Assembly (NCBI RefSeq): GCF_013128195.2
Contig: NZ_CP053452.2
Coordinates: 3,472,001-3,536,000, forward strand
Length of the DNA stretch: 64,000 nt
Direction: 5' to 3'
Source of the DNA: Frigoriglobus tundricola
GTDB lineage: Bacteria; Planctomycetota; Planctomycetia; Gemmatales; Gemmataceae
Made by a program: the position numbers and the translations under genes. Below are positions 14,203-59,917 of this stretch, one piece after another (positions within the stretch are counted from its first letter, which is position 1; each line of letters starts with the position of its first letter). The notes beneath the pieces were generated by a model, which was not told the DNA's origin, ran no database searches, and was given only the letters and a program-made list of their open reading frames with translations.

Positions 14203-17200
14203 TCACACCGGCGGGGCGTCCCCCGCCGCCATCTCCTCTGCGTTCGGGTGGGTCACAGGGGCGCCCGGCTTGTACCCCGGTTCGCCGGGCAGCGGTTCGT
14301 CCGCCTCTTCGAACGTGTTGGGCACCAGGAGCGAGTACACGCACGGGACGACGAGCAGCGTCGTCGCCAGCCCGGCCAGCAGGCCGCCCAGCACCGCCCG
14401 CCCCAGCGGCACGTTCGCCTCGCTCCCGCGGGCCAGCCCCAGCGACATCGGGATCAGCGCGAAGAACGTCGCCAGCGCGGTCATCACCACCGGCCGCACC
14501 CGGACCGCCGCGGCCCGCCGGATCGCCTCCGTGGGCGTGAGGCGTTCGGACTTGCGCAAGTTCTCGGCGAAGTCGGTCAGGAGCACCGTGTTCGACACGA
14601 CGATCCCGACCATGAAGATCACCCCGAGCAGCGACTGCACGTTCAGCGCGGTGCCGGTGAAGTACAGCATGAGCACCACGCCGGTCACGCCGACCGGCAC
14701 GGCCGACAGGACGACCAGCGGCGTGAGGTACGATTTGAACAGCGCCACCATCAGGAAGTAGATCAGGATAATGGCCCCGCCCATCCCCAGCGCCTGAAAG
14801 CGGAAGGTGTCGTTCATCTTCCGGTACTCGCCGCTCAGGACGAGCCGCGCGCCCTCCATCGTCTTCTGGTCCTGGCGGTCCGGGTCGTACGGGGTCCACC
14901 CCTCGTCGTTCGTTTCGAACTCCATGCCCGCGAACTTGATCTTGCGCGTCCGCTGCTTGCCGTACTTCGCGACGATCGCGTTCACCTCGGCCGCGACGTG
15001 CCCCAGGTCGCGCCCCTGGACGCCCATCGTCAGGTCGACCGTCGGCTGGAGGGTGGTGTGGACGACCTCAGAAGGCACCTCGGCCTTCCGCACGGTGGCG
15101 ACGTTCCGCAGCGGGATGGAGCGCTTCTGGTCGGCGCTGGTGATCGGGATGTTCAGCAACGTGTCCAGGTCCCGGATGGACCCCTCCGGGTACTGGACGC
15201 CGACGAAGTACTGGTTGTGGGACTTCGGGTCGATCCAGAAGTTCCGCTTGTTGAACTGGACCGAACTGTTGAACGCGGCCACGATGTTCCGCATCACGTC
15301 CGTCTGGGTCAGTTGAAGGTTCGACGCCTTGGACTGGTCCACCTCGATGACGTACTCCGGGTAGTCGAGGCGCTGGATGATGCGGGCGTCCACCACGCCG
15401 TCGATCGCCCGCACCTCGGTCAGGATGCGGTCCGCCACCTGCCGGGCCTTCGGCAGGTTCTTGGCCCGGATCTGCACGTTGATCGGCGTCGAGCGGCCCT
15501 CGTTCATGGCGGAGCGGATCATCCCCCCGGCGTCGAACGCGAACTCCAAATTGTTGCGGGCGAACGGCGGGGTGTCCGGCGTGAGCCGGTCGTCGGTCCG
15601 GTCGTCCTTGGGCCCGGGCGCGGTGAGGCGCCGCTGGTACACCGCGTCGAGTGTCCGCTGGAACTCCGGGTCGTCCGCGAACCCGGCCCGCAGGAGGGCG
15701 ACGGCCTCTTGCGCCGACCGGCTCCGCTCCGGCTTGAGCTGCACCTTGAGGACCGCGTCCATCGGCCCGGCGTTCGGGGTGAACGCGGCGGACCAGTCGG
15801 CCTTCAGCCCGATCTCGCTGATAATGATTTCCAGATCGTCCCCGAGCTTCTGTTTCGTGTACGTCTCGACGGCCTCCACGTACCCCTCCGTCACCTCGAT
15901 GCGGGTGCCGGACTTGGTGCGCGCGTAAATCTCGAACGCCCCGGCGTCCACTTCGGGGAAGAACTCGCGGCGCAGGTTGAGGCCGAACACGACCACGACC
16001 AGGGCCAGGGTCGTGAACGCCGCCGCGATCACCGCCCACCGCACCGTCAGGACCGTGTCGAGCAGCCGGGTGTACGCCCGGATGCCGACCTCGATGAGCC
16101 CCTCCCACCGCTGGAACGCGCGGCCGAGCCAGTTCGCGTGTCCGCCGCGGTGGGCGTGCCCGTTGCGGTGCTGGTAGTCGTAGTCGTGGGACTCGACCGG
16201 GTGCGCCGCGTGCCCGCTCAGCCAGGCCGCGCAGCGGGCCGGGACGAACGTCCGGGAGAGCAGGTACGCGATGCTCATCGCGAACGCGACGGCGAAGAAC
16301 ATCGGCCGGAACAGGAACGCGCCGAGCCCGGGCATGAGCGCCAGCGGCAGGAGGACGAGTAGGGTGCAGAGGCTGGCAATCAGCTCCGGCATCGCCACCT
16401 CGCTCGCGCCCAGGAACGCGGCCTCCTTCGGCCGCGCGCCGAGCCCCAGGTGGCGGTGGGTGTTTTCCAGGCAGATGATCGCGCTATCGACCAGCGGGCC
16501 GATCGCCAGGGCCAGCCCGGCCAGCGTCATCACGTTCACCGTCTGGCCCATCCCGAACAGGCAGGCGACCGCCCCCATTACTGCGACCGGGATCGTCATC
16601 ACGGCGATGGCCGTCATCCGCCACTCGCCCAGGAACAGCAGGATCACGAGCGAGCAGAGGACCGCGCCGAGCACGCCCTCCTCGGCCAGGCTGTCGATCG
16701 CGCTGCTGACGTACACCGACTGGTCCATGACCGGCTTCAGCGCCACGTCCGGGGTGATGAGCTTGGCCTGCATGTCCGGCAGGTTGTCCTTCAGGCTCCC
16801 GACCACGGTGAGGGTGCTGGCGCCCTGCTGGCGGAACACCGGGATGTACACCTGGCGGCGGCCGTCCACCCGCACGATGTTGGTCTGCATCAGACTGGCG
16901 TCCCTCGGCTTGGCCACGTCCCGGAGGAACACCACCTTCCCGCCCTTCAGGGTCTTGATGGGGATGTCGCCCATGCGGTCCACCAGCTCGTACATCGAGT
17001 TCGAGTCGAGGGCGTAGTCCTGCCACCCGAACTTCGCGTCGCCGGCCGGGAGGAAGATGTTGAACTTGTCGAGCGCGTCCATGACGTCGACCGGCGACAG
17101 CCCGCGGGCCTGCATCTGCTCGCGGTCGAGGTACGCCAGGATGGTCCGCAGCCGGCCGCCGAACACCACCGGGGCGTTCGCCCCCGGCGACGCCATGATG

Positions 17201-17697
17201 TAGTTCCGCACCTCGTACCGGCCGCAGTCGAAGAGCGCGGACTCGCCCTGGGTCTTGCTGCTGAGCGCGACCAGGCAGACCGGCGTGGCCGAGGTCGGGT
17301 CGTAGGGCAGGATGACGGGCGGGAGGGTGCCCGGCGGCAGGTTCGGGATGGCCGCGGTGGCGAGCGAGTTCACCTGGGTCAGCGCGGAACTCGGGTCGGT
17401 GTCGTCGGAGTAGTAGTTGCGGATGACGCTCGCGCCGATGATGGACCGGGACTCCTGGCGGCGCGTCCCCGCGGCCTGCCCGGTCCACCGCTCCAGCGGG
17501 CTGGTGATGTCGGCCTCGACGCTCGTGGCCGGCATCCCGTTGTAGAACGTGAGCACCTGAACGGCCGGGCTGCGGTACACCGGCAGGATGTCGGCGGGGA
17601 TCCGCCACAGGGCGGCCGCGCCGGCGATCACAATGGTGAGGACCAGGACGGTCACCGCCCGGGGGTTCCGGAGCGCGAAACTGATCAGCCCGTTCAT
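14203..17697 (-). CDS. Efflux RND transporter permease
   Basis: A 1,164-residue inner membrane RND pump driven by the proton gradient. The architecture is complete: a TM1 start (MNGLISFALRNPRAVTVLVLTIV), the porter domain, TM2-6 with the membrane signature LAGLALAIGPLVDSAIICLENTHRHL, and a second porter. The second membrane half includes GVIFMVGIVVSNTVLLTDFAENLR. It has the general build of the heavy-metal/hydrophobic-efflux branches; substrate cannot be told from sequence by eye. The adaptor gene lies 54 bp upstream on the same strand, forming an adaptor-pump operon, and two TolC-type genes converge on it from the other side. Together they could make one full tripartite pump. Confidence 0.95.
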   Translation of the reverse strand: MNGLISFALRNPRAVTVLVLTIVIAGAAALWRIPADILPVYRSPAVQVLTFYNGMPATSVEADITSPLERWTGQAAGTRRQESRSIIGASVIRNYYSDDTDPSSALTQVNSLATAAIPNLPPGTLPPVILPYDPTSATPVCLVALSSKTQGESALFDCGRYEVRNYIMASPGANAPVVFGGRLRTILAYLDREQMQARGLSPVDVMDALDKFNIFLPAGDAKFGWQDYALDSNSMYELVDRMGDIPIKTLKGGKVVFLRDVAKPRDASLMQTNIVRVDGRRQVYIPVFRQQGASTLTVVGSLKDNLPDMQAKLITPDVALKPVMDQSVYVSSAIDSLAEEGVLGAVLCSLVILLFLGEWRMTAIAVMTIPVAVMGAVACLFGMGQTVNVMTLAGLALAIGPLVDSAIICLENTHRHLGLGARPKEAAFLGASEVAMPELIASLCTLLVLLPLALMPGLGAFLFRPMFFAVAFAMSIAYLLSRTFVPARCAAWLSGHAAHPVESHDYDYQHRNGHAHRGGHANWLGRAFQRWEGLIEVGIRAYTRLLDTVLTVRWAVIAAAFTTLALVVVVFGLNLRREFFPEVDAGAFEIYARTKSGTRIEVTEGYVEAVETYTKQKLGDDLEIIISEIGLKADWSAAFTPNAGPMDAVLKVQLKPERSRSAQEAVALLRAGFADDPEFQRTLDAVYQRRLTAPGPKDDRTDDRLTPDTPPFARNNLEFAFDAGGMIRSAMNEGRSTPINVQIRAKNLPKARQVADRILTEVRAIDGVVDARIIQRLDYPEYVIEVDQSKASNLQLTQTDVMRNIVAAFNSSVQFNKRNFWIDPKSHNQYFVGVQYPEGSIRDLDTLLNIPITSADQKRSIPLRNVATVRKAEVPSEVVHTTLQPTVDLTMGVQGRDLGHVAAEVNAIVAKYGKQRTRKIKFAGMEFETNDEGWTPYDPDRQDQKTMEGARLVLSGEYRKMNDTFRFQALGMGGAIILIYFLMVALFKSYLTPLVVLSAVPVGVTGVVLMLYFTGTALNVQSLLGVIFMVGIVVSNTVLLTDFAENLRKSERLTPTEAIRRAAAVRVRPVVMTALATFFALIPMSLGLARGSEANVPLGRAVLGGLLAGLATTLLVVPCVYSLLVPNTFEEADEPLPGEPGYKPGAPVTHPNAEEMAAGDAPPV

Positions 17698-32523: not shown

Positions 32524-35500
32524 TCACTTCCCCTCGCCGCCCGGCAGGAGCGGCACCTTGGGCATGGCGATTTCGCCCGTGCCGGAGAACACCGGGTCGA
32601 CCGTGACGCTGAAGGTCTTGCGGTCGGGGTTCAACTTGTACGTGGCCCGGATGTCGCCGGTGCCGCTCGAGATGCCCGGCATGCGCATCTCCGTCGGGGC
32701 GGTGACGACCGGCAGCGCCGAGCCGCCGGAACTCGAGATCGGGGTGGACATCATCGAGCCCGCGGTGCCGACCCCGCCGCCGATCCCGGACACCCCGGTG
32801 GTCAGCGGCGCGCCGGTCGATTCGGTGCGGAGGCTCGTCGTCACCACCTCCTCCGCGACGTCCGCCAGCGTCACCCGCGAGCCGCCGACGAGGTCGATCC
32901 GGACCGGGGCGGCCCCCGTGAGCGGGACCTCGATCAGGTCCACCACCTCGCGCGGGGTGCCCTTGAACTTGGTCACCTTCACGGTCGCCCGGCCGCCGAT
33001 CGGCTTGCCGAACGCCTGCTTGACGGTGACGTAGTAGGTGCCGCTGAACGCGCTGGCGGCCGTGTACACCTCGGAGCGGTCGTTCCGCTGCTCGAGGATG
33101 TCGGCCTTCAGCACGCCGCCGGCGGAGGTCCGCTTGGTGGTGGCCGAGCACACGGACCCGACCGGCTCGGCGACCACGAGGTCGAGGTCGGCGTTGCCCT
33201 GCCACAGCAGCTCGATCACCAGGTCGCGCTGGGCCTGCTCGGCGATCGCGCGGGCCAGCGGCGCGGTGTCCCGGCCGTTGGCCTTGAGCTTGGCCTCCAG
33301 CTTCGGCAGCCGCTCCGCGGTCTGCTTGTGGTAGTCGATGCCGTCGGTCGTGCTCCAGTCGCGCTTGAGCAGGTTGTCCGCCGCCCACATGACGGCGTCG
33401 CTCCGCACGTCGGTGGCGAACTCGGCGTAGGCCAGGGCGTTGGCGTACGGGGTCGGGTCGTTCGGGCTGCACGCGGCGGCCCGGCGGCAGAACGCGACCG
33501 CCTGGTTGTGGTTCTTCAGGCCGGCCTCGGCCCGGGCCGCCTTCAGGTACGCCTTGGCGCTGGTCGGGTCGAGGTCCACGGCGGAGACGGCCGCCCGCTC
33601 CACCTCGGCCGGGTTGCTCCCCGCCGCCGCCTGGAGGGCCACCGCGAGGGCCTCGTGCGCCCAGTCGTCGGTCGCCAGCCCCTTGCGGAGGTTGCCCTTG
33701 AGGACCTCCACCGCCGCGCCGAACTCGTCGAACTCCATCAGGAACTCGGCCGCCGCCACGATCAGGCCGGGGTCGGTCACGGTCCAGTCGATCGCGTTGC
33801 TCCACATGGTCCGCGGGTCGTTCCCGAGGCGCTTGCGCAGCTCGACGTCATCGACCTTCGGGTTGTTCATCTTCGGCTTGTCGGCCGCCACGAGCGGACC
33901 GGGGTCCTTCACCGGCGACGCGGCCGCGACCTGGTCTTTCGGCCGCGCGTTGACCGGGTCCTTCGGCGCGGGCGGGGTGTTCGGCCCGATGACGACCCGA
34001 CCGTCCCCCTTCTGCGGGGCCGCGGCCATGCCGTCGTTGCCCTTCTTGAGCTTGACGGACGCCGCCGAGTGGTAGCGGGTGGTCCCGCGGACGATCAGCG
34101 CCCGGGCGGGCGGGTAGTAGCCGAGCGAGTTCAGCTTCGCGGCCGGCAGCGCCGGCGTTTCGTCCTCACCCATTCCCGGCATCGGTCGGGAGCCGGGGAT
34201 GTTGGCCCACTCGCCCTTCGCCACGGTTTCGAAGATCAGGTTCATGAGCAGCCGGCTCTGGTCGCCGCCCTGGAGGCCGAACTGGCCGCCCAGGTTACCG
34301 AACTGGCCGAGGTTGCCGCCGGTGACGCCGGCGATCCCGCCGCCGAAGCCGATGTTCGCCTGGTTCCCGAGCTGGTTGGCCCCGTTGCCGAACGGCCCCG
34401 CGCCCATCATCTGACCGGCCTGGCCCAAGCCGCCTTGGCCCACGCCGCCGAAGCCGCCGAAGCCGCCGAGGTTCTGGAGGCCGCCGCCGAAGAGGCTGGC
34501 CTGCCCGAAGATGGCCAAGTTCTGGTTCTGGAACTGCTGGTTCTGGAACAGCACCTGCTGGTTCACCGAACTCGGGATCGGGATCGCCAGGTCGGCGACC
34601 GGGAACACCCGGGTCATCTTCTCTTCCAGGCGGCGGTCGAACGTGGTGATCTCGATGTACTCCGGGCGGACGATGTACGTGGCGTTCATCGACAGGAGGA
34701 CGATGTCGAGGAAGTTGCCCAGCTTCAGGCCGCGGAGGGCGGTCGCCGCGAGCTTGGGCTTCTCCTCCTTGATGTTCGGCTGGCCGTCGGCCTTGAAGTA
34801 CTCCTCCATGATGACGAAGCTCACGTTGTACTTCTTGGACAGGGTCTGGAGCAGTTCGAAGAGCGGGATGTCGTTGATCTTCGTGTCGCCCAGATCGACC
34901 TCGGCCCCCTCGATGACGCTCTTGAGCTGCACCTGGGTCGGGCTGGGGGCCGGCCCCAGGTTGGAGTTCAGGTAGGCGTCGCGGCGGAGCCCGGTCAGCT
35001 CGCGCCACACCGCGGCCGGCGGGAAGTGGACCGGCGGCTCGTCGGGGTACGGGATGTGCGACTTCTCGGTCTGCATCATGGCGAGCAGGAACCGGTCCTG
35101 GCGGATGCGGACCAGCTCCTTCCACTCGCGCAACTGGGTGGCCTGCTGGCCGATGATGTAGCTGGCCGTGGCGGTCACCGGGACCGGCAGGCCCTTGACG
35201 GTCTTCTCCTGCACCATCAGTTGCGCTTCCTGGTAGGCCAGCTCGTAGCGGGCCTGCTGCATCAGCTGGCGGAACTGGTCGATCCGGTTCTTGTCGACGG
35301 CCTCGGCGTCCTGCGCCCGGTCGAACTCGTTGAGCCGCTGGCGGGTGCGGGAGACGGCCGCCCGCTCGGCGTCGGCCTGGCGCTTGATCTCGGCGCCCTT
35401 GACGAACACCTCGCGCATCACGGCCTCGAGGTCGGCGACCATCTGGCGGCGGGCGTCGTCGCCGATGGCGTCGTAGGCGAGGATCTCGTCGCGCTGCCGC

Positions 35501-37105
35501 TTGAGGTCCTGGTACGCCGCGTCGGGGTCGGTGCGGAGCAGCGCCCGGCCGCGCTGGACGGTCGCGGCGGTCAGCACCTTGTACCGCTGCTCCTCGATCT
35601 GGCGGCGGGCCGCGGCCTCTTTCAGGAGGTCGGCCGCGGCGGGGGGCCCCGGGCGCCGGCGGGGCCGGCGGCTCGGCCGCCCCGGGCTCCTGGAGGATGG
35701 CGCGGGCGGCCTCGTTCGGGGAGAGCTTGGTCGCGCCGACCTTGGCGTTGATCCGCTTGGTGAGGTCGGCCTTGGTCAGCTTGCCGGCCCGCATCCGGGC
35801 GACGAGCGCCGCGCCGGAGGTCGCCTCCTTATCGGTCGGGTCCACCTTGATCGCGGCGGCGTACAGCTTCTCGGCCTCGTCCAGCCGGTCCACACTCACG
35901 GCCCACACGGCCTGCGTGAGGAACTCGTCGCGGTACAGCTTCACCTGCGTGCTGGCGAGCGCCAGGGCGCGGTCCGACTGGAGCATGGCCGGCGCGTCCT
36001 TGTGCGGCGCGTTCCGCCACTGGTCGAGCATCAGGCTGAGGAAGAAGTGGTCGAGCTGCGGGGCGGGCAGCGGCTGGGTCAGCGCCAGCGTGACCGGCTT
36101 GGCGTTGACGAGCCCGTCGATCGTCAGGGTCACGGCGCCGGCCAGCGGCTTGGCGACCTTGCCCATCACCAGCGTGGCGCGGTCGGCGCGGAGCGGGGGC
36201 AACTTGGTCGGGTACGACTCGCCCACCTCGTCGCCGAACCGCCACTTCTCCGGCTTGACCACCGGCACGTCCAGGGCGGCCTTCACGCGGGCGAAGAACG
36301 CGGTCCGCTGGGCCGGAACGGTCAGGTCCTCCTGCAGGCGCACCACCGCGCCGCCGGTGAGGGCGGCCAGGCCGTGCAGGTTGTGCGCGTCGAGCTTCAG
36401 CCCGAGCGGCACGGCGAAGAAGTACACGTCGGCCAGGTCCAACCGGTTGCCCAGCGCGAGGCGGTCGGTCTCGGTCACCTCCTTGTACGCGCTCTCCCCG
36501 TCGCCGAGGTACAGCACCACCTGGTGCCGGCCGCGGTTCGGGGCGAGGGTCGCAACGGCCTTCTCGACGCCGCCCTTGAGGTCGGCCGCGCCCGAGCCGT
36601 ACTCGATCTCGGTGAGCGCCGACGCGGCCTCCAGCACGTTGGCGGCGTGCGCCGGCTGGAAGTCGCGGGTGAGCGCCCGGGTGGTGGCCGGGGTGTTGAG
36701 CGCCCACACGCTGACGCGGTCCTCGGCCGACAGGCCGGCGGCCAGCGCGGCGATGATGTTCTTGGCCTGCTGGAGGGGCCGGCCGGCCTGGCTGGCGGTC
36801 GTGTCCACCAGCACCAGCACGTCGCGCGGCCGCGGGGCGGGCGCGGCGACGGCGGGCTGGACCTGCCAGGCGAACAGCACCTCGCCGTCGCGCGGCTGGT
36901 ACGTCAGCACGGGCAATTTGCTGAACCGCGTGGCGACCAGTTCGTCGACCGTCCGGCCGCCGTCCGGCCGGGGCAGCGGTCCGGACGCTCTGGGGGCATC
37001 GGAGCCGGTGCGGAGGTCGCCGAAGACGGTCGTACCGACGGCCGCGAGGGTCGCGAACACCCCCAACAGCGGTGGTAAAAACCGCAGCCGTTTCAATAAG
37101 GTCAT
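32524..37105 (-). CDS. Giant VWA / STN-like / Gln-Gly-rich / TPR mosaic protein (one frame break)
   Basis: Read through one indel this is a protein of about 1,526 residues. It opens with a signal-anchor (MTLLKRLRFLPPLLGVFATL) and a von Willebrand A domain from about 95, with VLVLVDTTASQ, a DxTxS-type MIDAS. A helical region follows to about 486, where the frame breaks at six G (35641-35646); with five, GAPAAADLL continues correctly. Then comes a coiled coil and a region at about 730-825 resembling a secretin N-domain (INDIPLFELLQTLSKKYNVSF, YIVRPEYIEITTFDRR). After it lie about 100 residues extremely rich in Gln, Asn, Gly and Phe, TPR-like helices (about 1155-1235), and a YfaP/DUF2135-like strand domain (LLWQGNADLDLVVAEPVGS). 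No secretin barrel is present. It is probably exported, with a structural or binding role unknown. Confidence 0.85.
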
Positions 37106-37659
37106 TGCCCAGTCGCTCCTACAGGTGGGGCATCCGGCGAAGCGGTCGGACGGCCCGAACAGGTGCAAACGATAGCCCGATTGTACGCCACGGCCGGGCC
37201 GTTACGCCACGCGAAACCGTGCAACCCCAAGGGGGGCTGGGGCTTCGTCCGTTGGGCGTTTGGCGCCGGGTGTCGGGTATTCGGACGGTCGCTGCCGATA
37301 GCGGGTCTCGGTCCGCGGTCACGAAACACGAGGCCCCGAACACCGAACACGACTACGAACGAGTCTAACCGGTTTAACGTGTGCCCCGGGCTGGCGTTGG
37401 CGAGTTCCGCCGATCCGGTGTCGCGCGGGCGAGTTATTGATCATTTTCTCGGCGGAATCGACACAACCGGATGGGGGGATTTTGATTTGACTTGCCCGTT
37501 CCACGGCCTACTTTTCAGGCGGGCGAAGCATTCAGGCCGGGCAACAGGATCTTTCCGCCGGGGCCGCACGGCTCGCGCCACTGTCCCGATCGCCCCGTCC
37601 GTCGCACCGCGTTCGTCCCGTTCCCGAGCGAGCGCCCCTTTAAATCGAACCAACCGGAC
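37106..37659. other. 554-bp divergent intergenic region without a gene
   Basis: It separates the VWA gene (minus) from the coiled-coil gene (plus) and must hold both promoters. Around 37320-37350 there is a stutter of the form CGAACACCGAACACG, in the style of the other short-period repeats here. An A/T-richer patch at about 37430-37500 (GAGTTATTGATCATTTTC) is the best place for a promoter. I cannot fix -35 and -10 boxes with confidence. Nothing else is recognisable. Confidence 0.5.
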
Positions 37660-46878: not shown

Positions 46879-48114
46879 ATGACGAATCGTCAAAAATCGG
46901 CGATCTGGTTAGTTTCCGTGCCGGTGGTTCTCGTCGTCGCCGTCTGCGCCCGGCAGTTGGTCGCATCGGCGGCCGAGGCCCGCAAGCCGGCGGCGGTCGA
47001 TCCGCCGCCGATCGCGGTCACCACCGCGCGGCTCGCTCCGGAATCACTGACGCGGGCCGTCCGGTACAGCGGAACGGTTAAGGAGTGGCAGCGGGTCGAA
47101 CTGTCGTTCCGGGTCGGCGGCACGGTCGCTGATCTGTGCCGGATGGCGTACCCCGGCGGCGCCCGCGACGTCCACGAGGGCGACCGGTTGCCGCGGGGCA
47201 CCGTGCTCGCCCGACTCGACCCGGCCGATTACCAGCGGGACCGGGCGCTCGCCGCCCAGCGCCTCGCCCAGGCGGAAGCCAAACTGGTGTCCGCACGGGC
47301 CGAGGCCGAGAACGCCCGCAAGGAGTACACCCGTGTGCGCCTGGCGACCGAGCGCGGGGCCGGCGCCCAGACGGACCTGGACGCGGCCCAGTCCAGGGCC
47401 GAAACCACGGCGGCGAACGTGAACTCGGCCGCCCGCGAGGTGGACGCGAACCGGTCCCAACTGGCCCAGGCCGACGCGAACCTCGCCTACTGCACCCTCG
47501 TCATGCCGTACGCCGAGGGCACGGTCGCGAACCGGTACGTCGAGACGAACGAGCGGGTCACGGCCGGTCAAAAGACGTTCCAGGTTCTCGACCTGTCGAG
47601 CGTGCGGATCGCGTTCGGCGTGTCCGACGCCGTCGTGGGCCGGCTGGCCATCGGCGGGGCGGTTACGGTCACCACCGACGCCTTCCCCGACGACCGGTTC
47701 CGCGGGGTCATCACCAAACTGGCCCCGACCGCCGACCCGCAGACGCGCACCTACCTGGTCGAAGTGCGCATCGCCGAACCGCGTGGGCTGCGCCCGGGGA
47801 TGGTGGCGACGGCGCTACTTGGTGAGGACAAAACGGCCTCTTTGCTCCCGCTGGTCGCGGTCACCCGCGAGGCGACCGGCGCCGGCCGCCTCGTCGCGTA
47901 CAAGGTGGTCCGCGCCGGCGACCGCACGACCGCGCACGCCTGCCCGGTCGAACTGGACGGGGTCGTCGATAACCGGGCCGCGATCCGGACCGACACCCCT
48001 GGCGGGCTGCGGCCCGGTGACGAGGTGGTGGCGAACGGCGCGCCGCGGCTGTTCGAGGGGGCACCGGTGAAGGCGATCGGCGGCCCGGCCGCCGGCGGGG
48101 AGGGCACGCGATGA
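46879..48114 (+). CDS. RND efflux periplasmic adaptor of the TetR operon
   Basis: An MFP/HlyD-family adaptor of 411 residues. A membrane anchor (SAIWLVSVPVVLVVAVCARQL) is followed by VRYSGTVKEWQRVELSFRVGGTVADL (lipoyl start). An alpha-hairpin comes next (LAAQRLAQAEAKLVSARAEAENARKEY to QADANLAYC), shorter than that of the 17752 adaptor, then MPYAEGTVANRYVETNERV and the barrel (GLRPGMVATALLG). ATG 46879 is chosen; a GTG at 46855 overlapping the tetR stop is possible. The start codon directly precedes the second operator copy. Its stop overlaps the pump start (ATGA at 48111), so translation is coupled. Confidence 0.93.
   Translation: MTNRQKSAIWLVSVPVVLVVAVCARQLVASAAEARKPAAVDPPPIAVTTARLAPESLTRAVRYSGTVKEWQRVELSFRVGGTVADLCRMAYPGGARDVHEGDRLPRGTVLARLDPADYQRDRALAAQRLAQAEAKLVSARAEAENARKEYTRVRLATERGAGAQTDLDAAQSRAETTAANVNSAAREVDANRSQLAQADANLAYCTLVMPYAEGTVANRYVETNERVTAGQKTFQVLDLSSVRIAFGVSDAVVGRLAIGGAVTVTTDAFPDDRFRGVITKLAPTADPQTRTYLVEVRIAEPRGLRPGMVATALLGEDKTASLLPLVAVTREATGAGRLVAYKVVRAGDRTTAHACPVELDGVVDNRAAIRTDTPGGLRPGDEVVANGAPRLFEGAPVKAIGGPAAGGEGTR
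46881..46893. promoter_or_regulatory. Operator candidate 2: GACGAATCGTCAA at the adaptor start
   Basis: An exact copy of the 13-mer in the regulator's promoter, 784 bp downstream, overlapping codons 1-5 of the adaptor gene. As coding sequence it gives TNRQ, so it serves both as DNA site and codons. Upstream (46861-46868) is a run of eight T. A regulator bound here could act as a roadblock or repress an internal promoter. Confidence 0.68.
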
Positions 48115-51100
48115 CCGTCTCACAGTTCTTCGTCTACAAGCGCCCGGTCGCCTGGGCGCTGCTCGTGGTGACCGTGGCCTGGGGGCTGTTCGCGTACGGC
48201 CAGATGCCCCAGCGCCAGGACCCGCAGATCCAGATCCGCAGCGGGGTCATCATCACCCCGTACCCCGGCGCGACCCCGACCGAGGTCGAACAGCGGGTGA
48301 CCCGCAAGATCGAGAAGAAGATGACCGAGAACCCGGCCGTCGAGCGGGTCAACTCGATCAGCCGGCAGGGGCAGTCGGCCGTGTTCGTCACCCTGTTCGA
48401 CACGACGAAGAACGCCGAGCAGGTGTGGCAGGACCTGGCCGCCAAACTGGAGGTGCTGGACGACCTGCCCGCCGTCGGCGGGCAGCCGCTCAAGCCGAAA
48501 CTGGATAAAGACTTCGGGGACACCGTTGCGGTGATGCTGACGCTCAGCAGCCCGCCGGTGTCGGACTTCGAAATCGACGAACGGGCACGGGCGATCGGTC
48601 GGGCCGTGACCGAAGCGCGGACCGGTCGCGCCGGCCCGCGCCTGAGCGGGGTTCTCGTACACCCGGCGGGCGTGGCGGCGAACTTCGTCGAACGGATGGG
48701 CCGGTCCGTGCTGAGCGCCTTGACCGAAGCCGGGATCGCGGCCGACGGCCAGTACGTCGCCACGATCGGGGCCGGGCTGATCGACTTCCGGCTCCCGGCG
48801 GGGCGCACCGAAGCCGACGCCCGCACCGCCCTCGAAAACTGGGAGCGGGAATCGGTCGGCACCGGCGCCGGGCACCCGGACATGTGGCCCGGCGTCCTGA
48901 TCCGCGACCCGGCGGACCTCGCCTCGGCCCTGAAGGAACGGGTGCGGTCCGTGCCCGGCGGCGTGGCCCGGTACACGTTCAAGCAAATGCACGACTACGC
49001 CGACGTGATTCAGGACCGGTTAAGGCAGTCGAAGTACGTCGGCCGGATCGACCAGCTCGGCGTCCAGGACGAAGCCGTCTTCCTTTACTACAGCAACCGC
49101 CGGCTGACGGAACTGGGCCTGGACCCGTCGGTCATCAACCTGCGGCTCGCGGCCCGGAACATCAGCCTGCCCGGCGGCCAGGTGGAGCTGCCGGGGCAGA
49201 CGCTGGCCGTCAAGCCGTCCGGCGAGTTCAAGTCCGAGGCGGAACTGGGCGGCGTGCCGCTGGACGCCCGGCCGGGGTACCCGCTCTACTTGCGGGACGT
49301 GGCCGAGATCGTGCGCGGGTACCAGGACCCGCCCCGGCAGCTCCACTACCGGACGGTCCGCGGGGACGACCCGGGCGGCCCGCGGCGCGCGGTCACGCTC
49401 GCGGTGCGGCACATCAAGGGGACGCAGATCGCCGAGTTCGACGCCGACGTCACGGCCCGACTGGACGTGCTGCGGGCCGAACTCCCGGACGACCTCCGGG
49501 TCGAGCGGACGAGCAACGAGCCGGCGCAGGTGGAGAAGAAGATCCACCAGTTCACCGACTGCCTCGTGGAAGCGGTTGTCATTGTGGTGGTGGTGGCGCT
49601 GGTGTTCATGGAGTGGCGCAGCGCGCTCCTGGTGGCCGCGTCCATCCCGCTGGCCGTCGCGATGACGCTCGGGATGTGCCACCTCCTCGGGATCGACATC
49701 CAGCAGATCTCCATCGCCGCCCTCATCATCGCGCTGGGCCTGCTCGTGGACGACCCGGTCGTGGCGAGCGACGCGATCAACCGGGAGCTGGCCGAGGGGC
49801 ACCCGCGGGCCGTGGCCGCGTGGCTCGGGCCGCAGAAGCTGGCCCGCGCGATCCTCTACGCCACCGTCACCAACATCGTCGCGTTCCTGCCGCTGCTCCT
49901 GATCACGGGCGGCTCGGGCGAGTTCGTGTACTCGCTGCCGGTGGTGGTGACCGCGTCGCTCGTCGCCAGCCGCGTCGTGTCGATGACGTTCATGCCGCTC
50001 CTCGGGTACTACATCCTGCGCGGGCAGAAGGGGCTGGCCGGCGCCCACCCGGACGACCGCCGGGGCTTCGCCCGGCTGTACACGCGCGTCAGCCGGTTCT
50101 GCATCGGGCACCGGTGGCTGACGCTGTTCGTTGCGACGACGGCCCTCGGCACCGGCTTCAGCCTGGTGCCGCTCATCGGCTCGGCGTTCTTCCCGAAGGA
50201 CCTGCACACCACGTTTTCCGTGAACCTGTTCCTGCCCGAGGGCACGTCCGTGCGCGAGGCGGCGGCCGAGGCGGAGCGGGTGACCCGGCTCATCGACGCC
50301 GCGGCCGGGGACGAGGTGGCCGCGTACACGACGTTCGTGGGCCAGGGCGGGCCGCGGTTCTGGCTGTCGGTGGTGCCCGAGCAGCCGGCGCCGAACTACG
50401 CCCAGATCCTGGTCCACACGAAGAACGCGTACGCCACCGCGGCGCTCGCCAACCGCCTCAAGCTGGCGCTGCCCCCCCGCGCGACCGGCCGCCTCACGGT
50501 CGAGGTGCTGGAGAGCGGGCCGCCGGTCGGCGTGCCGGTGCAGATCCGCGTCTACGGCCCCGACATCGCCCGGCTCCGGCAGATCGGCGCAGAGGTGAAG
50601 GGGCTCATGCGGTCGATCCCCGGCACGGACAACATTCACGACGACTGGGACCCCGACGCGCTCCAGTTCGGCCTGCGGGTGCGCCCGGACCGGGCCGCGG
50701 TCGCGGGCGTGACGAACGAGGACGTGGCGGCGGTCACGCAGGCCGGGCTGTCCGGGACGGCGACGACGTACCTGCGCGAGCGGGACCGGCTCATCCCGAT
50801 CACGTTGCGGCTGCGCCCCGACGAGCGGGCCCGGGCCGAGGACCTCGCCACCCTCACGGTGTTCAACAGCCAGTCCGGGGCGAAGGTCCCGCTGGACCAG
50901 GTGAGCGAGTTCCAACTGGAGGCGATCCCGCCGAAGGTGCTGCGGCGCGACAACGAGCGGTGCATGACGATCAAGTGCGACGCCCTACCCGGCACCCTCC
51001 CGAGCGCCGTGGTGGACGAGCTGGAGCAGAGGTTGAAGCCGGCCGCGGCCGAGTGGCCGCCGGGCTACCGGTTCGCGGTCGGGGGCGAGAAGGAGGAGCA

Positions 51101-51656
51101 GACCAAGGGGTTCAAGTCGATCGCCACGGCCGGGATCGTGTCCATGCTGGCGATCTACCTGGCCCTGGTGGTGCAGTTCAACAGCCTGACCAAGCCGCTG
51201 CTGGTGTACGCGGCGGTGCCGTTCGGGATGGTCGGCGGGCTGATGGGGCTCCTGATCTTCAACGTCCCGCTGGGGTTCTTCGCCGGGCTGGGCCTGTCCA
51301 GCCTGATGGGCGTGATCGTGAGCCACGTGATCGTGCTGTTCGAGTACATCGAGGAGGCGCACGAGAAGGGCGAGCCGGTGCGCGAGGCGGTGGTGGACGC
51401 GGGCCTCGCGCGGCTCCGGCCGGTGCTCGTGACGGTACTCGCAACGGTCGGCGGGCTGGTGCCGCTGGCGCTCAAGGGCGGGCCGCTCTGGGAGCCCTTG
51501 TGCTACGTCCAGATCATCGGGCTGCTGGTGGCCACGGGCGTCACCCTGCTCCTGGTCCCGGTGCTGTACGTGGTGTTCGTGGAGGACCTGGGCCTGGTCC
51601 GGTGGGACCCGCCGGGCACGCACGCGGACGGGCCGCCGCCCGAGCCGGTGGGGTGA
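48111..51656 (+). CDS. Efflux RND transporter permease of the TetR operon
   Basis: A 1,181-residue inner membrane RND pump, complete at both ends. TM1 starts FFVYKRPVAWALLVVTVAWG. The first membrane signature is AALIIALGLLVDDPVVASDAINREL, carrying the proton-relay Asp pair, and the second half ends with LGLSSLMGVIVSHVIVLFEYIEEAH and a C-terminal TM bundle. DPQIQIRSGVIITPYPGATPTEVEQRVTRKIE is a typical early porter segment. It overlaps the adaptor gene by 4 bp, with GGGAGGG upstream as its ribosome site. No channel gene follows, so it probably shares one of the TolC-type proteins encoded at 10661-14012. It is only distantly similar to the 14203 pump. Confidence 0.95.
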   Translation: MTVSQFFVYKRPVAWALLVVTVAWGLFAYGQMPQRQDPQIQIRSGVIITPYPGATPTEVEQRVTRKIEKKMTENPAVERVNSISRQGQSAVFVTLFDTTKNAEQVWQDLAAKLEVLDDLPAVGGQPLKPKLDKDFGDTVAVMLTLSSPPVSDFEIDERARAIGRAVTEARTGRAGPRLSGVLVHPAGVAANFVERMGRSVLSALTEAGIAADGQYVATIGAGLIDFRLPAGRTEADARTALENWERESVGTGAGHPDMWPGVLIRDPADLASALKERVRSVPGGVARYTFKQMHDYADVIQDRLRQSKYVGRIDQLGVQDEAVFLYYSNRRLTELGLDPSVINLRLAARNISLPGGQVELPGQTLAVKPSGEFKSEAELGGVPLDARPGYPLYLRDVAEIVRGYQDPPRQLHYRTVRGDDPGGPRRAVTLAVRHIKGTQIAEFDADVTARLDVLRAELPDDLRVERTSNEPAQVEKKIHQFTDCLVEAVVIVVVVALVFMEWRSALLVAASIPLAVAMTLGMCHLLGIDIQQISIAALIIALGLLVDDPVVASDAINRELAEGHPRAVAAWLGPQKLARAILYATVTNIVAFLPLLLITGGSGEFVYSLPVVVTASLVASRVVSMTFMPLLGYYILRGQKGLAGAHPDDRRGFARLYTRVSRFCIGHRWLTLFVATTALGTGFSLVPLIGSAFFPKDLHTTFSVNLFLPEGTSVREAAAEAERVTRLIDAAAGDEVAAYTTFVGQGGPRFWLSVVPEQPAPNYAQILVHTKNAYATAALANRLKLALPPRATGRLTVEVLESGPPVGVPVQIRVYGPDIARLRQIGAEVKGLMRSIPGTDNIHDDWDPDALQFGLRVRPDRAAVAGVTNEDVAAVTQAGLSGTATTYLRERDRLIPITLRLRPDERARAEDLATLTVFNSQSGAKVPLDQVSEFQLEAIPPKVLRRDNERCMTIKCDALPGTLPSAVVDELEQRLKPAAAEWPPGYRFAVGGEKEEQTKGFKSIATAGIVSMLAIYLALVVQFNSLTKPLLVYAAVPFGMVGGLMGLLIFNVPLGFFAGLGLSSLMGVIVSHVIVLFEYIEEAHEKGEPVREAVVDAGLARLRPVLVTVLATVGGLVPLALKGGPLWEPLCYVQIIGLLVATGVTLLLVPVLYVVFVEDLGLVRWDPPGTHADGPPPEPVG

Positions 51657-54227: not shown

Positions 54228-57200
54228 TCAATCCGCGTCCACGCCGAGCCAGTGGGTCACGTCGAGGCGGGCGTGCGGCGTGCAGGAGATCGTTTCGGGC
54301 AGCGCGGCGTAGGCGGCGGCGGGCGCCGGCCCGACGTGCGGGCAGCGCGGCCAGGGGCACCGCGGGCCACTCGCGGTACACGGTCAGGTCGTCGCGGCTG
54401 TCGGTCACCGGCAGGCCGGCGACCGGAATGGCGCGGCGGGCCAGTTCGCGCAGCGCTTCGCCCGTCGGGCCGCCGGGGCACGAGAGGACCGCCACCTCGG
54501 CCCCGACCCACGGGCCGTTCCCGACCCACGCCGGCTCGGCCTCCTGGTACGCCTGTTCGATCGCCCGCTCGGCCTGCTGCGGGGTGCGGAACCGCTCGGC
54601 GAACATCGCCGCCAGCCCGACCTCCCCCAGCCGCGCGTCCAGGTGCGCGCGGGTCTCCTCGTACACGACGTTCACGACGCCGCCCACGCCGGCCGCCGAG
54701 TTCGAGCACACGTGCAGCAGCCCGCCGGCCTCGGGCTCCAGCACGGACTGGACCCGGCGGTCGATTTCGGTCATGTCCTCGTCGGTCAGCACCTTCAGGA
54801 AGCGGTCCACCGCCTCGCCCACGGTGGCGCACCCCGGCGGCATCAGCCGGCGCAGCGGCACCGCCGGGTCGGCCGGCCCCTCGGTCGGTTCGGGCGCGAC
54901 CACCGCCGCGAGCCGCTGCCGGGCCGCGGACACCTCGGCCAGTTGCGCGCTCAGCGCCTCGCGCACCGATTGGTAGGCCGCGACCACCTGGCGGAAGGTG
55001 AGCGCCTGGAACCGCGCCCGCGGGTACTGGCGGAGCGCCTCGCCGAGTTCGGCCGCGGTCGGCTTCCGCATCCCCTTGTGGTAATGGGCGTAGTGCGACA
55101 GGCACTCGAACCCGGCCACGGCCTTGCCGTCCAGATCCACGGCCGACTGGAGGAACCGGTCGATGAGCCGGTCGGTGTTGGCGAGGAACTGGCGGTACAG
55201 CTCTTCGGTGCCGGCGAGGCGGAACTGCGGGTCGTCCACCAGCACCGGCAGGAGGTTGTGCAGGTCGAGCGCGAACGCGGCCCCGACGTCGGCGGCGGCC
55301 TTCACGAGCGCGTCCTCGACGGGGGTCGGCGGGCGCTTGAGGGACGACGCGGGCGGGCCGATGAGCCGGTTCAGCGCGTCCAGGGCGAGGGACACGTGTG
55401 TCGGTTCGGGCGTCCGGGCGAGCCACCCGCGCGGAACGAGCGGCTCGGCGATCTGGCCGATCCGCTCGTCCACCCGGGCCCCGGCCGCCAGATCGGCGGC
55501 GGCCTCGAGGCGGCCGAGGACCGCGTCCGGGTCGAACCCGAGCTGCGCCCACCGCGCCCCGGCGAGGCCGGGCATCACCTCGCGGAACCGCTTCGGGTCC
55601 GGGGCCGCCCACCGTTTCAGCACGGCCCGGGCGACGGCCACCGCCGTGCGGCCGACCACCTCGGCCCGCGGCCAGTCGAACGTCGCCAGGCCGAACGTCG
55701 CGACCGCGACCGGCGCGTGCGCGGGGAGCGCCTCTTCGAGTTCCTGGGCCGTGCGCAGGTCCCGCGCGTCGTCGGCGGCCCGGCCGATCGGGCTGAACAG
55801 ATCGATGCGGATCCGGTCGGCGGCGTCGGCGTACGGTTTGAGGGTGGCGGTCGCGGCCGTGGGGTCCGGGTGCGCTGGGAGCCCAGCGCGGTCATGTGGA
55901 TGACGCGGGACCCCGGCTTGGCAACGGGGCCGGAGGCGCGCGCCCGGGGGCCGGGGGCGGCGATGGTCGGCGGGGTGCGCCGCGGCGGCGGGCTGATCCC
56001 GGAGCCCGGCTGCGGGGCCAGGGCCGCGACCGGTCCCGGCAGCAGGTAGCAGCGCGTGAACGGGGCGTCCTTTTCCTTCACGAACCCGTTCCGCTCGTCG
56101 TAATGGGCCGTGAACACCGTGTCCGGCCGGCTGAAGTGGTTCAGCTCGGTCAGGGCGGCGAACGTGTTCCCGAGCAGCTGCGGCGGGGTCAGGGTCGCGT
56201 CGGCCGGCGGCACCACGAAGAGGCCGATGATCTCGGGGGCGTCGTACCCCATCCGCTTCAGCCGGCTGCGCACCGCGTACGCCACGTCGAGGAACATGCC
56301 CCCGCCGGTCGCGCCGGCCAGGCCGCCGGTGACGTACACCCGCGGCCGGTTCGTCCGCCGGCGGAGGCCGGTGCGGGCCTCGGTGAGCAGGATCGAATCG
56401 GCGGCCAGGGCGGCCTCCAGTTCGGCCTGCACCTTGCCCATCAGCAGGCGGTAGTGGTCGAGGAACGCGAGCCGGCCGAACAGCCGGATGCCGAGCGTCT
56501 GCGGCGTCCGGGGGAGCCGGTAGAGCAGCTGCGGGTCGAACCAGCCCTCGGTCAGCGTGCGGCCGTTGAACCGGGGCTTCAGGTAGTGGGCGGCGCGGTT
56601 GAGCCGGGCCGGGAACACCTCGTCGGGCGCGAGCGGGGCGAGCCGGTCGGGCGACCGGTCGCGGGCGGCCTCTTCGAGCATGTCGGGGTCGGTGTCGATG
56701 TACAGCGCGCGGACGGCCGGGGTCATGCACGCGGGGCCGAACCGCTCGCCCAGATCGAACCGCAACCGCTGGAGGACGCGCAGGCCCGCCTGGCCCAGCC
56801 CGATGACGACCGCGGGCTGGAGCGAACCGGGGCCGGTCAGCTCCGGCGGGGCGGGGGTGAACACCGGGCTCACGAACTCGCCGGACCGCGGCGGCGTGTC
56901 GCCGGCCGCGGCCAGCGGCGGCAGATCGGCAACCAGGATGTTCAGCGCGGCGTGGCTCGCCGACCCGCCGCGCGGCGGGGTTTCCACCTCGGCGGACGAG
57001 ACGACGACGCGGGCGTGGACGCCCGACCCGGCGGGGTTGCTGGCGATGGCGCGGACGAACGAGGACACGTTCGGCCACCGGTCGTCCGGCTTCTTCGCGA
57101 GCGCGCGGGCCAGCGCGGGCCGGTCGGCGGACGGGCAGGGCTCGAGGTTCGGGGGCAGGTTCATGTGCTGCATGAGCAACTGGCTCATGCTGCCGCCGTC

Positions 57201-57854
57201 GAACGGGCGGATGCCGGTGAGCAGCTCCTGGTACACGCAGGCGAGGCTGTACTGGTCGCAGAACCGCGTGATCATGCCGTCGAACGTCTCGGGGGCGGCG
57301 TACACGGGCGTGATGCCGCCCGTCACCTGCGCCATCAGCCCCTGGAGGTCCTTCACCTGCCCGAAGTCGGCCACCTTCACGTGGTTGTGAAGCATGAACA
57401 GGTTCTGCGGCTTGATGTCCAGGTGCTGGAGCTGGAACTGGTCGTTGAACAGGTCCAGCACCTCGGCGGCCTCGGTCATGTACTGGAGCAGCTCGTCGCG
57501 CGGGATGCCGATCAGGCCCCGGTCGCGGCAGTCGCGGAAGCGGTCCCAGAGGTTGCAGTCGGCCAGTTCCATGACGATCATGAGCCGGCCGTCCACGATG
57601 TCGTACCGGTCGAGGGCGAGCAGGTACGGGTGGCGGACCTGCTTGACCCGCTTCAGGGCCTTCAGTTCCTGTTCGGCGTACCGGACCAGATCCGAGTCCT
57701 TGGACCGGAGGTCGCCGTGAATGATTTTAACGGCCTTGAAGATGCCGCCGGGCGCCTCGCACCGCCACACTTCGCCGAACCCGCCGGAACCGAGACGGTC
57801 GAGGAGGCGGTATCCGGGGATGGGTTCGACCTGGGACTCGATACGAACGGACAT
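54228..57854 (-). CDS. Ser/Thr protein kinase fused to a tubulin-like domain (two compensating frame breaks)
   Basis: A fusion of about 1,208 residues. The kinase domain (12-275) has the glycine loop LGSGGFGEVW, Lys43 (FKAVK), HLDIKPQN (Asp146, Asn151; HRD Arg is Leu), DFG (163-165) and APE, so it is probably active. A linker leads to a tubulin/FtsZ-like fold (about 348-790): AVVIGLGQAGLRVLQRL as nucleotide-binding start, YIDTDPD, and the signature loop VTGGLAGATGGGMFLDVAY (508-526), close to tubulin GGGTGSG. The layout matches the bacterial Tubulin_2 family. A long helical C-terminus follows. The frame breaks near 55882-55884 (one base short) and at 54340-54342 (one base extra). The two cancel, so the total is divisible by three. 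ATG 57854 begins MSVRIESQVEPIPGY. Confidence 0.87.
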
Positions 57855-58294: not shown

Positions 58295-59817
58295 GTGTAG
58301 GCGTCATATCTGTGGGGACGTTTTGAGTCAGTTCCGCGACCAGAAGGCATCCCACTGGCCGGTTTCGCCTCGGAACAGTCCGCGGATGTGGCCCACCTGG
58401 TCGGCCCCGTCGGTGCCCCACCGCATCCCGGCCTGCTTCATCCGCGCGCCCACCACGCTCTTGCACGCGCTCTCCACCGGCCCGCTCCCGATCTGCCAAC
58501 CCTTCGCCCGGTACGACGGGTAGTACATCCGGTGCTTCTGGTTCCCGAAGTACCGGACCGCCTCGGCCAACGGGACCCGGGCCGCGGCCGGCACCGGCTC
58601 ACCCTCCAGAACCCGCAACTTCGACAGCACCGCCTCGCCGCCCGTGTGCTTCAGCGCGTGGCACCACTCCGCCGACCACGCCTTCGACCTTTCCTCGTCC
58701 CCCGGGTGCCACGCCCGGCCGATCGCGCCGAGGTATTCCGACGCGTGGTAGAAGTCGAGGATCACCACCTCCACCCGCGGGAAGTTGCTCGTCAGGAACT
58801 CCTCCAACCCGCTCCCGCCGTCCGAGATCGCCACCCACCGGTCGGCCCCGTCCATCCCCACCTGGCCCCCCTGCCGGCGGAGCGGCTCGCCCAGCCCGTC
58901 CAACCCGTCCAGGGACGTGACGTACCGGGCCTGCCACGCCGGGCGGGCCCGACCCGGATGAGCCCACCGCGCCTTCTCCTCGGGGATCGGGTTGTAGACC
59001 ATCCCCACGTTCACCATCCGCCCGTCGGCCGTCGCCCCGCCCGGCCCCTGGATGCGAACCCCGGTCGCGTCGCACGAGACGTACGCGACCGTCCGCCCGT
59101 CGGCGTCCCGGTGCCAGTCCCACGGGCGGGCCTCTCCGAACACCGCGCCGCCGGCCAGGGCCCGACCGATCTCGGACCCGACCGCCTCGGTGACCCGCTC
59201 GACCGTCGATTCCGACACCCGCAGCCCCGACAGCTTCGGGAGCAACGTGTCGGCCGCCTCGGCGAAGCTGTCGACGGACCCGGCCAGGGCGATCACCTCC
59301 CGGGCGGCCGGGGTCTGTCGGGTGGCACCCAGGCCCAGGGTGTGGTCGAACGGGACGGTCCCGGTCCCGCAGTCCGCGCAGTGGTAGTAGTGGCGGGTGA
59401 GCGTCATCCCGCCGAGCAGGCCCAGGACGGTGCGGGGCCGGAGCCCCTTCAGGTCGGCATCGGATCGACAATGGGGACAGACGAGGGTGGACCCAGGGTA
59501 GCCCCCTTTTTCCGCTCCTCCAGGGCGGCCTCCAGGGCGGTGGCCCCGAGCCGGTGGACCAGGGTGCGGAGGTCGAACTCGGTCGGGCCGAGGAGTTGGG
59601 CGTCGGGCCGCGTGGCGAGGAGTTCGCCGAACCGCTGGGCCTCGCGCTGCGCGACCCGGAGGAACAGGGCGGCGAACTGGTCGGCCTCGCGTTGCTGGTC
59701 CGGGGTCAGAGGGGCGTCCGGCATGGCGTGACTCCTTCTCGCGGGGGGATTTTCCCTCGGTCGCATGTGCCGCTATCAGACTACGGTTTTTCCCACCCAC
59801 TTTCGTGACGCCTACAC
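58295..59817 (-). mobile_element. ISKra4-family-like insertion sequence, 1,523 bp, complete
   Basis: The ends are inverted: GTGTAGGCGTCA at 58295-58306 and its exact complement at 59806-59817, with weaker matching inwards. Exact 9-bp direct repeats flank both ends. Inside is one transposase gene on the minus strand covering most of the length. Left end to stop is 33 bp, right end to start 93 bp. Intact ends and an unmutated target duplication indicate a recent insertion. It landed between the kinase-tubulin gene and the PVC haem protein gene and broke no coding sequence that I can see. Confidence 0.93.
58328..59724 (-). CDS. ISKra4-like transposase, probably made by -1 frameshifting
   Basis: A DDE-type transposase of about 465 residues in two overlapping frames. 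The first (ATG 59724, MPDAPLTPDQQREADQF) covers a helical N-terminus to EERKKG. The second continues as GYPGSTLVCPHC with zinc-ribbon cysteines (CPHC, YHCADCG). The acid blocks follow: YVSCDATGVRIQG, WVAISDGGSGLEEF, VVILDFYHASEYLG, and GSGPVESACKSVVGARMKQAGMRW with the Glu. The switch happens on AAAAAGGGGG (59511-59502), where a slip back by one base joins the frames. Such slippery runs are used on purpose by several IS families, so this may be programmed, but an indel error cannot be excluded. Confidence 0.88.
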
Positions 59818-59826
59818 CAGTGGGGA
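59818..59826. repeat. Right target-site duplication CAGTGGGGA
   Basis: Exact partner of 58286-58294. Removing the element plus one copy restores a continuous intergenic sequence upstream of the gene at 59918. Confidence 0.93.
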
Positions 59827-59917
59827 GGCACTTCTCGGTGCGCGCTTCCATCGTCCCCGCGCCGCGGTACACTGTTCATACCCACCCCCTCCCTCCACGC
59901 TCTCCGGGAGCCCTTCG

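What the first reader, a model, noticed from the sequence alone, without database searches (positions are those of the whole stretch)
54228..57854. Ser/Thr kinase fused to a tubulin/FtsZ-like domain in an apparent planctomycete
Seen: a kinase domain with Lys, catalytic Asp, Asn and DFG is followed in the same chain by a nucleotide-binding start (AVVIGLGQAGLRV) and a glycine loop TGGLAGATGGGMF typical of the tubulin superfamily. Known: Planctomycetes as a class generally lack ftsZ, and a bacterial tubulin-like Pfam family (Tubulin_2) exists with no settled function. Inference: this could be a kinase-controlled cytomotive or scaffold protein, or a GTPase sensor. The HRD Arg is Leu, so activation-loop control may be unusual.
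Basis: partly seen in the sequence, partly recalled or inferred. Interest (0 to 1): 0.78.

Follow-up and report, generated by a model that had tools for sequence, protein, structure and literature searches.

The report
Kinase-tethered tubulin relative, frameshifted copy
This is one of three related genes in a Gemmata-like bacterium that join a protein kinase to a tubulin-like protein; the fusion was described in 2010, but the structure model and gene neighbours found here give a bacterium without FtsZ a concrete, testable candidate scaffold linked to chromosome segregation.

Summary
The kinase–tubulin-like fusion is real and on the minus strand. Pfam gives Pkinase 93.7 bits and Tubulin_2 109 bits, both over cut-off. 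In the window the gene is not one open frame. It changes frame at ~55,869 and ~54,341, each a one-base difference in a C-run, and the net frame is restored. The part between the breaks shows no relaxed selection, so a sequence error or very recent change is likelier than an old pseudogene.

The architecture is known: Makarova & Koonin 2010 described the FtsZl1 family and its planctomycete kinase fusions. New here, as far as the searched literature shows:
(1) An AlphaFold model of an intact orthologue shows a complete FtsZ/CetZ-type fold (CetZ Z=25). Its C-terminal domain is split by a ~365-residue helical insertion. The 2010 paper could not find that domain.
(2) Gemmataceae carry three orthologous copies (A, B, C). 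The window is B. C has lost one residue of the phosphate loop.
(3) In 11 genera the gene is directly followed by scpA.
(4) Outside the family it follows an FHA-EAL gene.
(5) FtsZ is absent.

Best reading: a GTP-dependent self-assembling kinase scaffold. Polymerisation is untested.

The parts
54228..57854 (-). Kinase-FtsZl1 gene, clade B of three paralogues; read in three frame segments, about 1208 codons in all
57045..57812 (-). Hanks-type Ser/Thr kinase domain, non-RD (HLD), catalytic residues present
   Evidence: PF00069 93.7 bits; motif alignment; orthologue model matches PknB Z=29
56814..57044 (-). Flexible linker between kinase and tubulin fold
   Evidence: orthologue residues 274-326 pLDDT < 50
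56040..56813 (-). Tubulin-superfamily GTP-binding core (T1 to S6)
   Evidence: PF13809 109 bits; orthologue models
56292..56330 (-). Phosphate-binding glycine loop T4, TGGLAGATGGGMF
55868..55870 (-). Frame break 1: C-run one base shorter than in the same-genus orthologue
55762..55794 (-). Candidate T7 segment SPIGRAADDAR with a conserved acid (after break 1, other frame)
   Evidence: acid D/E in 104 of 131 homologues, but Lys in the cyanobacterial ones; inference
55608..55710 (-). S7 and H9 of the C-terminal (activation) domain
   Evidence: by alignment to the orthologue model
54501..55605 (-). Helical / coiled-coil insertion splitting the C-terminal domain (about 365 residues)
54228..54498 (-). 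S8-H10-S9-S10-H11, end of the split C-terminal domain
54340..54342 (-). Frame break 2: C-run one base longer than in the orthologue; restores the first frame

Best explanation
It is the clade-B copy of a three-member family of kinase-FtsZl1 proteins kept by Gemmataceae, which lack FtsZ. An N-terminal, probably active Hanks-type kinase is tethered by a flexible linker to a complete tubulin-superfamily GTPase. The C-terminal half of that fold is opened by a long helical arm. Most likely mechanism (inferred): GTP binding lets the tubulin modules associate head to tail, alone or A with B, into short polymers or a patch. That concentrates the kinase domains so that they phosphorylate each other and targets brought in by the helical arm. 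GTP hydrolysis releases them. In Gemmataceae the likely business is chromosome organisation or segregation (operon with scpA). In other planctomycetes the phosphorylated sites would be read by an FHA-EAL protein. Shown: domains, fold of an orthologue, three copies, operon links, absence of FtsZ. Inferred: GTP use, assembly, kinase activation by assembly, link to SMC. The two frame breaks in this assembly are most likely sequence errors or very recent.
For: Pfam domains; kinase catalytic residues conserved and T4 loop GGGTG[GS]G kept in most A and B copies. Orthologue model pLDDT 87.5, pTM 0.82; matches CetZ Z=25.0 (297 of 342 residues, 3.3 A, model 9-844), FtsZ and TubZ Z~21. Three orthologous clades, A and B in tandem in most genera. 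scpA directly downstream on the same strand in 11 genera, gap or overlap of tens of bases in those read. Outside the family: GGDEF, FHA-EAL and P-loop NTPase genes precede it. FtsZ absent. dN/dS of the window copy 0.29 before break 1 and 0.39 between the breaks, against 0.36 and 0.31 for the intact A and C pairs.
Against: No protein of this family has, to our knowledge, been shown to bind GTP or polymerise. The acid that completes the GTPase site in FtsZ and tubulin is only a candidate here and is Lys in cyanobacterial homologues. The helical insertion sits in the domain that polymerising relatives use for contacts. scpA is unlinked in the window's own genus and in most sampled genomes; in draft assemblies contig breaks hide some links. 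The model is of an orthologue, 65% identical in the first part and about 43% in the helical half.
Confidence: 0.45

Rival explanations
1. A GTP-switched kinase sensor without polymers: the tubulin fold acts as a monomeric or dimeric nucleotide switch that controls the attached kinase, and output goes through phospho-Thr readers (FHA-EAL) and c-di-GMP turnover.
For: FHA-EAL and GGDEF genes next to the single kinase-FtsZl1 gene in eight loci outside Gemmataceae; clade C has a phosphate loop one residue short in 14 of 14 copies, so at least one paralogue need not be a polymerising GTPase.
Against: Complete tubulin-type fold with both domains; no clear FHA-EAL orthologue next to the Gemmataceae genes.
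Confidence: 0.3
2. Membrane-remodelling complex of the kind predicted for FtsZl1 operons (vWA protein, GTPase, OmpA-like proteins).
For: Proposed for the family from gene context by Makarova & Koonin 2010 (PMC2875224); Gemmataceae are known for invaginated membranes (PMC8567305 abstract).
Against: No vWA, GTPase or OmpA gene among the neighbours scanned beside the window copy, copy A, copy C and the G043 orthologue; scpA and c-di-GMP genes instead.
Confidence: 0.12
3. A biological-conflict (defence) module, like the tubulin-domain genes with GAP1-N2 GTPases and vWA proteins.
For: Kaur et al. 2020 (PMC7159879) place tubulin-domain proteins in such systems; an HSP70-family gene lies within about 5 kb in a few loci.
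Against: Three copies inherited vertically across a whole family with stable synteny; no GTPase or vWA beside them; defence modules are usually patchy.
Confidence: 0.05
4. In this genome the gene is a broken pseudogene and copies A and C do the work.
For: Two frame breaks; an ISKra4 transposase gene lies just upstream.
Against: Both breaks are one-base differences in C-runs that cancel out; selection is not relaxed; this assembly shows more mid-gene frame switches (7 in 464 kb) than G043 (2 in 400 kb), although these counts are small.
Confidence: 0.25

Closest known systems
FtsZl1 family (Pfam Tubulin_2, PF13809), including the planctomycete kinase fusions of Makarova & Koonin 2010
   Same: Same domain order (kinase, FtsZ-like core, long helical part), same glycine loop, same lineage. 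The window gene is a member.
   Different: The 2010 paper found no T6-H7 or C-terminal domain and described a helical C-terminal domain. The model here shows the helical part inserted into a complete tubulin fold. vWA/GTPase/OmpA neighbours are missing.
CetZ (archaeal tubulin-superfamily proteins; 3zid, 4b45)
   Same: Best structural match of the orthologue model, both domains (Z 25.0 and 24.3).
   Different: 12-14% identity; CetZ has no kinase and no ~365-residue insertion.
Bacterial FtsZ and phage/plasmid TubZ
   Same: Same fold (Z ~21), T1 and T4 loops.
   Different: PF00091 score of the window protein is below cut-off (12.2 against 33 bits); T7 acid not certain; kinase fused.
PknB-type Hanks kinases (M. 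tuberculosis PknB)
   Same: Best structural matches of the kinase domain (Z 29), all catalytic residues.
   Different: HLD instead of HRD (non-RD); no PASTA or membrane segment; tubulin fold attached.
GAP1-N2 GTPase-centred tubulin systems (Kaur et al. 2020)
   Same: Tubulin-superfamily domain with C-terminal coiled coil or helical part.
   Different: No GTPase or vWA partner found beside the planctomycete genes; kinase fused instead.

Membership tests
FtsZl1 / Tubulin_2 (PF13809) | Profile score over the curated cut-off | tested here: met
   109 bits against 27 for the window protein
FtsZl1 / Tubulin_2 (PF13809) | T1 and T4 nucleotide-binding loops | tested here: met
   AVVIGLGQAG and GGLAGATGGGMF in the window; T4 is GAT where most relatives have GGT, shared with two same-genus orthologues
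FtsZl1 / Tubulin_2 (PF13809) | Extended coiled-coil / helical part after the FtsZ-like core | tested here: met
   Orthologue model, helices 750-1093; homologous sequence in the window in another frame
vWA/FtsZl1 membrane-remodelling operon | vWA, GTPase or OmpA-like genes adjacent | tested here: not met
   None among the neighbours of the window copy, copy A, copy C and the G043 orthologue that were scanned with Pfam; not every neighbour was scanned
FtsZ/tubulin superfamily fold | Two-domain tubulin fold (GTPase core plus C-terminal domain) | tested here: met
   Orthologue model against CetZ Z=25, 297/342 residues, model range 9-844; orthologue, not the window copy itself
FtsZ (cell-division protein) | PF00091 over the curated cut-off | tested here: not met
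   12.2 bits against 33
FtsZ/tubulin superfamily fold | Catalytic acid in the T7 loop | tested here: inconclusive
   Candidate D/E in 104 of 131, Lys in cyanobacterial members
FtsZ/tubulin superfamily fold | GTP-dependent polymerisation | not testable with these tools
   Needs purified protein
Hanks-type Ser/Thr kinase | Pkinase profile and K, E, D, N, DFG residues | tested here: met
   93.7 bits against 31.7; alignment
RD-kinase subclass | Arg in HRD | tested here: not met
   HLD here and in nearly all homologues shown

The most novel reading that the evidence does not exclude
FtsZ-less Gemmataceae keep a dedicated kinase-tubulin cytoskeleton: A and B co-assemble into GTP-dependent filaments, C caps or regulates them, and the scpA operon marks a role in chromosome segregation or condensation. 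It would be a prokaryotic polymer whose every subunit carries its own kinase.
Probability: 0.15. Interest if true: 0.88.

Novelty: new member of a known kind. Interest (0 to 1): 0.5.

Why it matters
How planctomycetes divide and organise their cells without FtsZ is an open question. This family is a tubulin-superfamily protein set that is kept in three copies by most members of a family without FtsZ. Its fold is, by prediction, complete enough to polymerise. The conserved scpA link and the split-domain model turn a vague 2010 prediction into specific tests: GTP binding and assembly of one module, and nucleoid phenotypes of three deletions.

Tried and rejected
Programmed frameshifting: rejected because orthologues are continuous and both breaks are one-base C-run differences that cancel. 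Old pseudogene: no relaxed selection. Unusual HLD motif as a special feature of this gene: family-wide. A residual FtsZ in the family: the single PF00091 hit among 61 genomes is itself a Tubulin_2 protein of G001. Weak EAL hit (E 0.11) in the helical half of the window protein: chance level, absent from relatives. The first frame-switch scan returned nothing because of its penalty settings and was redone. Whole-protein fold search returned only kinases, so the tubulin part was predicted and searched alone. PDB sequence search with the tubulin-part profile gave only helical chance matches (ZorA, apolipoproteins). Plasmid collection: no match. T7 acid as a family-wide feature: not upheld. Jogler 2012 (PMC3497475) is not held.

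Full report
What is there. On the minus strand an open frame from ATG 57854 reads a Hanks-type Ser/Thr kinase followed by the GTP-binding core of a tubulin-superfamily protein. Pfam gives Pkinase 93.7 bits and Tubulin_2 109 bits, both far over their cut-offs, in one frame.

The frame breaks. The coordinates 54228-57854 do not hold a single open frame. GC by codon position moves to another frame near 55,865 and back near 54,340. tblastn with five orthologues follows the same path. Against the same-genus orthologue L036, the first break is ACCCGG where L036 has ACCCCGG, and the second is CTGCCCGCAC where L036 has CTGCCGCAC. The two cancel. Between the breaks dN/dS against L036 is 0.39, close to intact pairs of copies A (0.36) and C (0.31), and distances to outgroup orthologues are like those of intact L036. 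A codon-usage scan finds 7 mid-gene frame switches in 464 kb of this genome and 2 in 400 kb of G043; the counts are small. I read the breaks as sequence errors or very recent changes. I cannot decide between these without reads.

What family it is. The genome lies in Gemmataceae (named relatives: Gemmata, Limnoglobus, Fimbriiglobus). Makarova & Koonin 2010 (PMC2875224) described the FtsZl1 family and noted planctomycete members with an N-terminal kinase. PMC9871819 repeats this, and PMC11032199 names the tubulin-like domain as the commonest partner of cytoplasmic planctomycete kinases. The fusion is therefore known. HLD in place of HRD is shared by nearly all members and is not special to this gene.

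Three copies. Fifty of 61 sampled Gemmataceae genomes have Tubulin_2, usually three copies. A tree of full-length proteins gives three clades, A, B and C, each roughly following the genomes. The window gene is B. A and B stand in tandem in many genera and are apart in the window's genus. In the wider phylum only 25 of 294 genomes have the domain, mostly one copy outside the family. With cyanobacterial sequences as outgroup, C falls with the single-copy genes of other planctomycetes and A with B; support values were not examined. All 14 C copies have a glycine loop one residue shorter than the superfamily motif, so C may not use GTP in the usual way.

Fold. AlphaFold2 of an intact B orthologue (L077, a Gemmata MAG) gave pLDDT 84.5. 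The part after the kinase, predicted alone, gave pLDDT 87.5 and pTM 0.82. It matches CetZ with Z 25.0 over 297 of 342 residues (3.3 A), and FtsZ, TubZ and tubulins with Z about 20-21. The match runs from model residue 9 to 844, that is, to the far C-terminus. Foldseek's own E-values for tubulins were modest (best 4.9e-4), as expected if an insertion interrupts the fold. From the secondary structure I assign S7 and H9 before, and S8, H10, S9, S10 and H11 after, a helical arm of about 365 residues. The exact element names are my inference, since residue-level alignments were not shown. Makarova & Koonin could not identify T6-H7 or the C-terminal domain; the model indicates that both are there and that the helical part is an insertion. 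A candidate T7 acid is D or E in 104 of 131 homologues but Lys in the cyanobacterial ones, so intersubunit GTP hydrolysis is not established.

Neighbours. In 11 genomes of 11 genera scpA (PF02616) follows a kinase-FtsZl1 gene on the same strand within one gene length. In the seven loci read, the gap is tens of bases or an overlap. One of these, the basal single-copy locus L071, already has this order, so it may be ancestral. In the window's genus scpA is elsewhere. Upstream of A a divergent 4HFCP-synthase gene is kept in 15 loci. Outside Gemmataceae all eight loci read have an FHA-EAL gene and a P-loop NTPase gene close upstream, with GGDEF-type genes in most. FHA domains bind phosphothreonine (established knowledge), which fits a kinase output. 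No vWA, GTPase or OmpA gene was found among the neighbours scanned.

FtsZ. PF00091 finds nothing in this genome, while 13 of 14 control genomes ring. In 61 Gemmataceae the only hit is a Tubulin_2 protein of G001.

How it probably works. Shown: an intact kinase, a complete tubulin-type fold in an orthologue, a conserved phosphate loop in most A and B copies, three vertically kept copies, operon links. Inferred: GTP-dependent association of the tubulin modules gathers kinases, which then phosphorylate each other and bound targets; the scpA link suggests the chromosome as the site. The main rival is a nucleotide-switched kinase sensor that never polymerises. The evidence does not separate them. 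Confidence is 0.45 for the scaffold and 0.3 for the switch. These readings are not fully exclusive of the artefact question, which concerns only this genome's copy.

Verdict. The gene belongs to a known family and its architecture is published. The added value is the split complete fold, the A/B/C set, the defective loop of C, and the scpA and FHA-EAL links. I found no earlier report of these in the open-access library searched, which does not hold most subscription papers. Interest 0.5.

Noticed in passing
window 58328-59872 (-): ISKra4-family transposase gene (NCBIfam 247 bits, cut-off 205) about 470 bases upstream of the kinase-FtsZl1 start; its first 120 codons do not match the family and may be in a shifted frame.
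   Followed up: partly
window ~35641 (-): Another abrupt change of coding frame on one strand between ORFs 34295-37168 (weakly similar to a sortase-target protein family) and 32524-35577; may be a gene boundary or a frame break.
   Followed up: no
L044, L046, L050, L052, L062, L067, L071: scpA directly after kinase-FtsZl1, with gaps of tens of bases or overlaps: an operon link between a tubulin-like kinase and the SMC-kleisin system.
   Followed up: partly
L151-L158: Outside Gemmataceae the kinase-FtsZl1 gene stands with FHA-EAL, P-loop NTPase and GGDEF-type genes, linking phosphothreonine reading to c-di-GMP.
   Followed up: partly
L034, L037, L045, L060: Clade C genes lie close to a convergent ftsH-like gene in four genomes.
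   Followed up: no
L034:6299-7771 (+): A protein with the ApeA N-terminal domain (a defence-linked family name in Pfam) next to clade C in this genome.
   Followed up: no
window 14203-17697 (-) and 48111-51656 (+): Two RND efflux permease genes in one 64-kb window.
   Followed up: no
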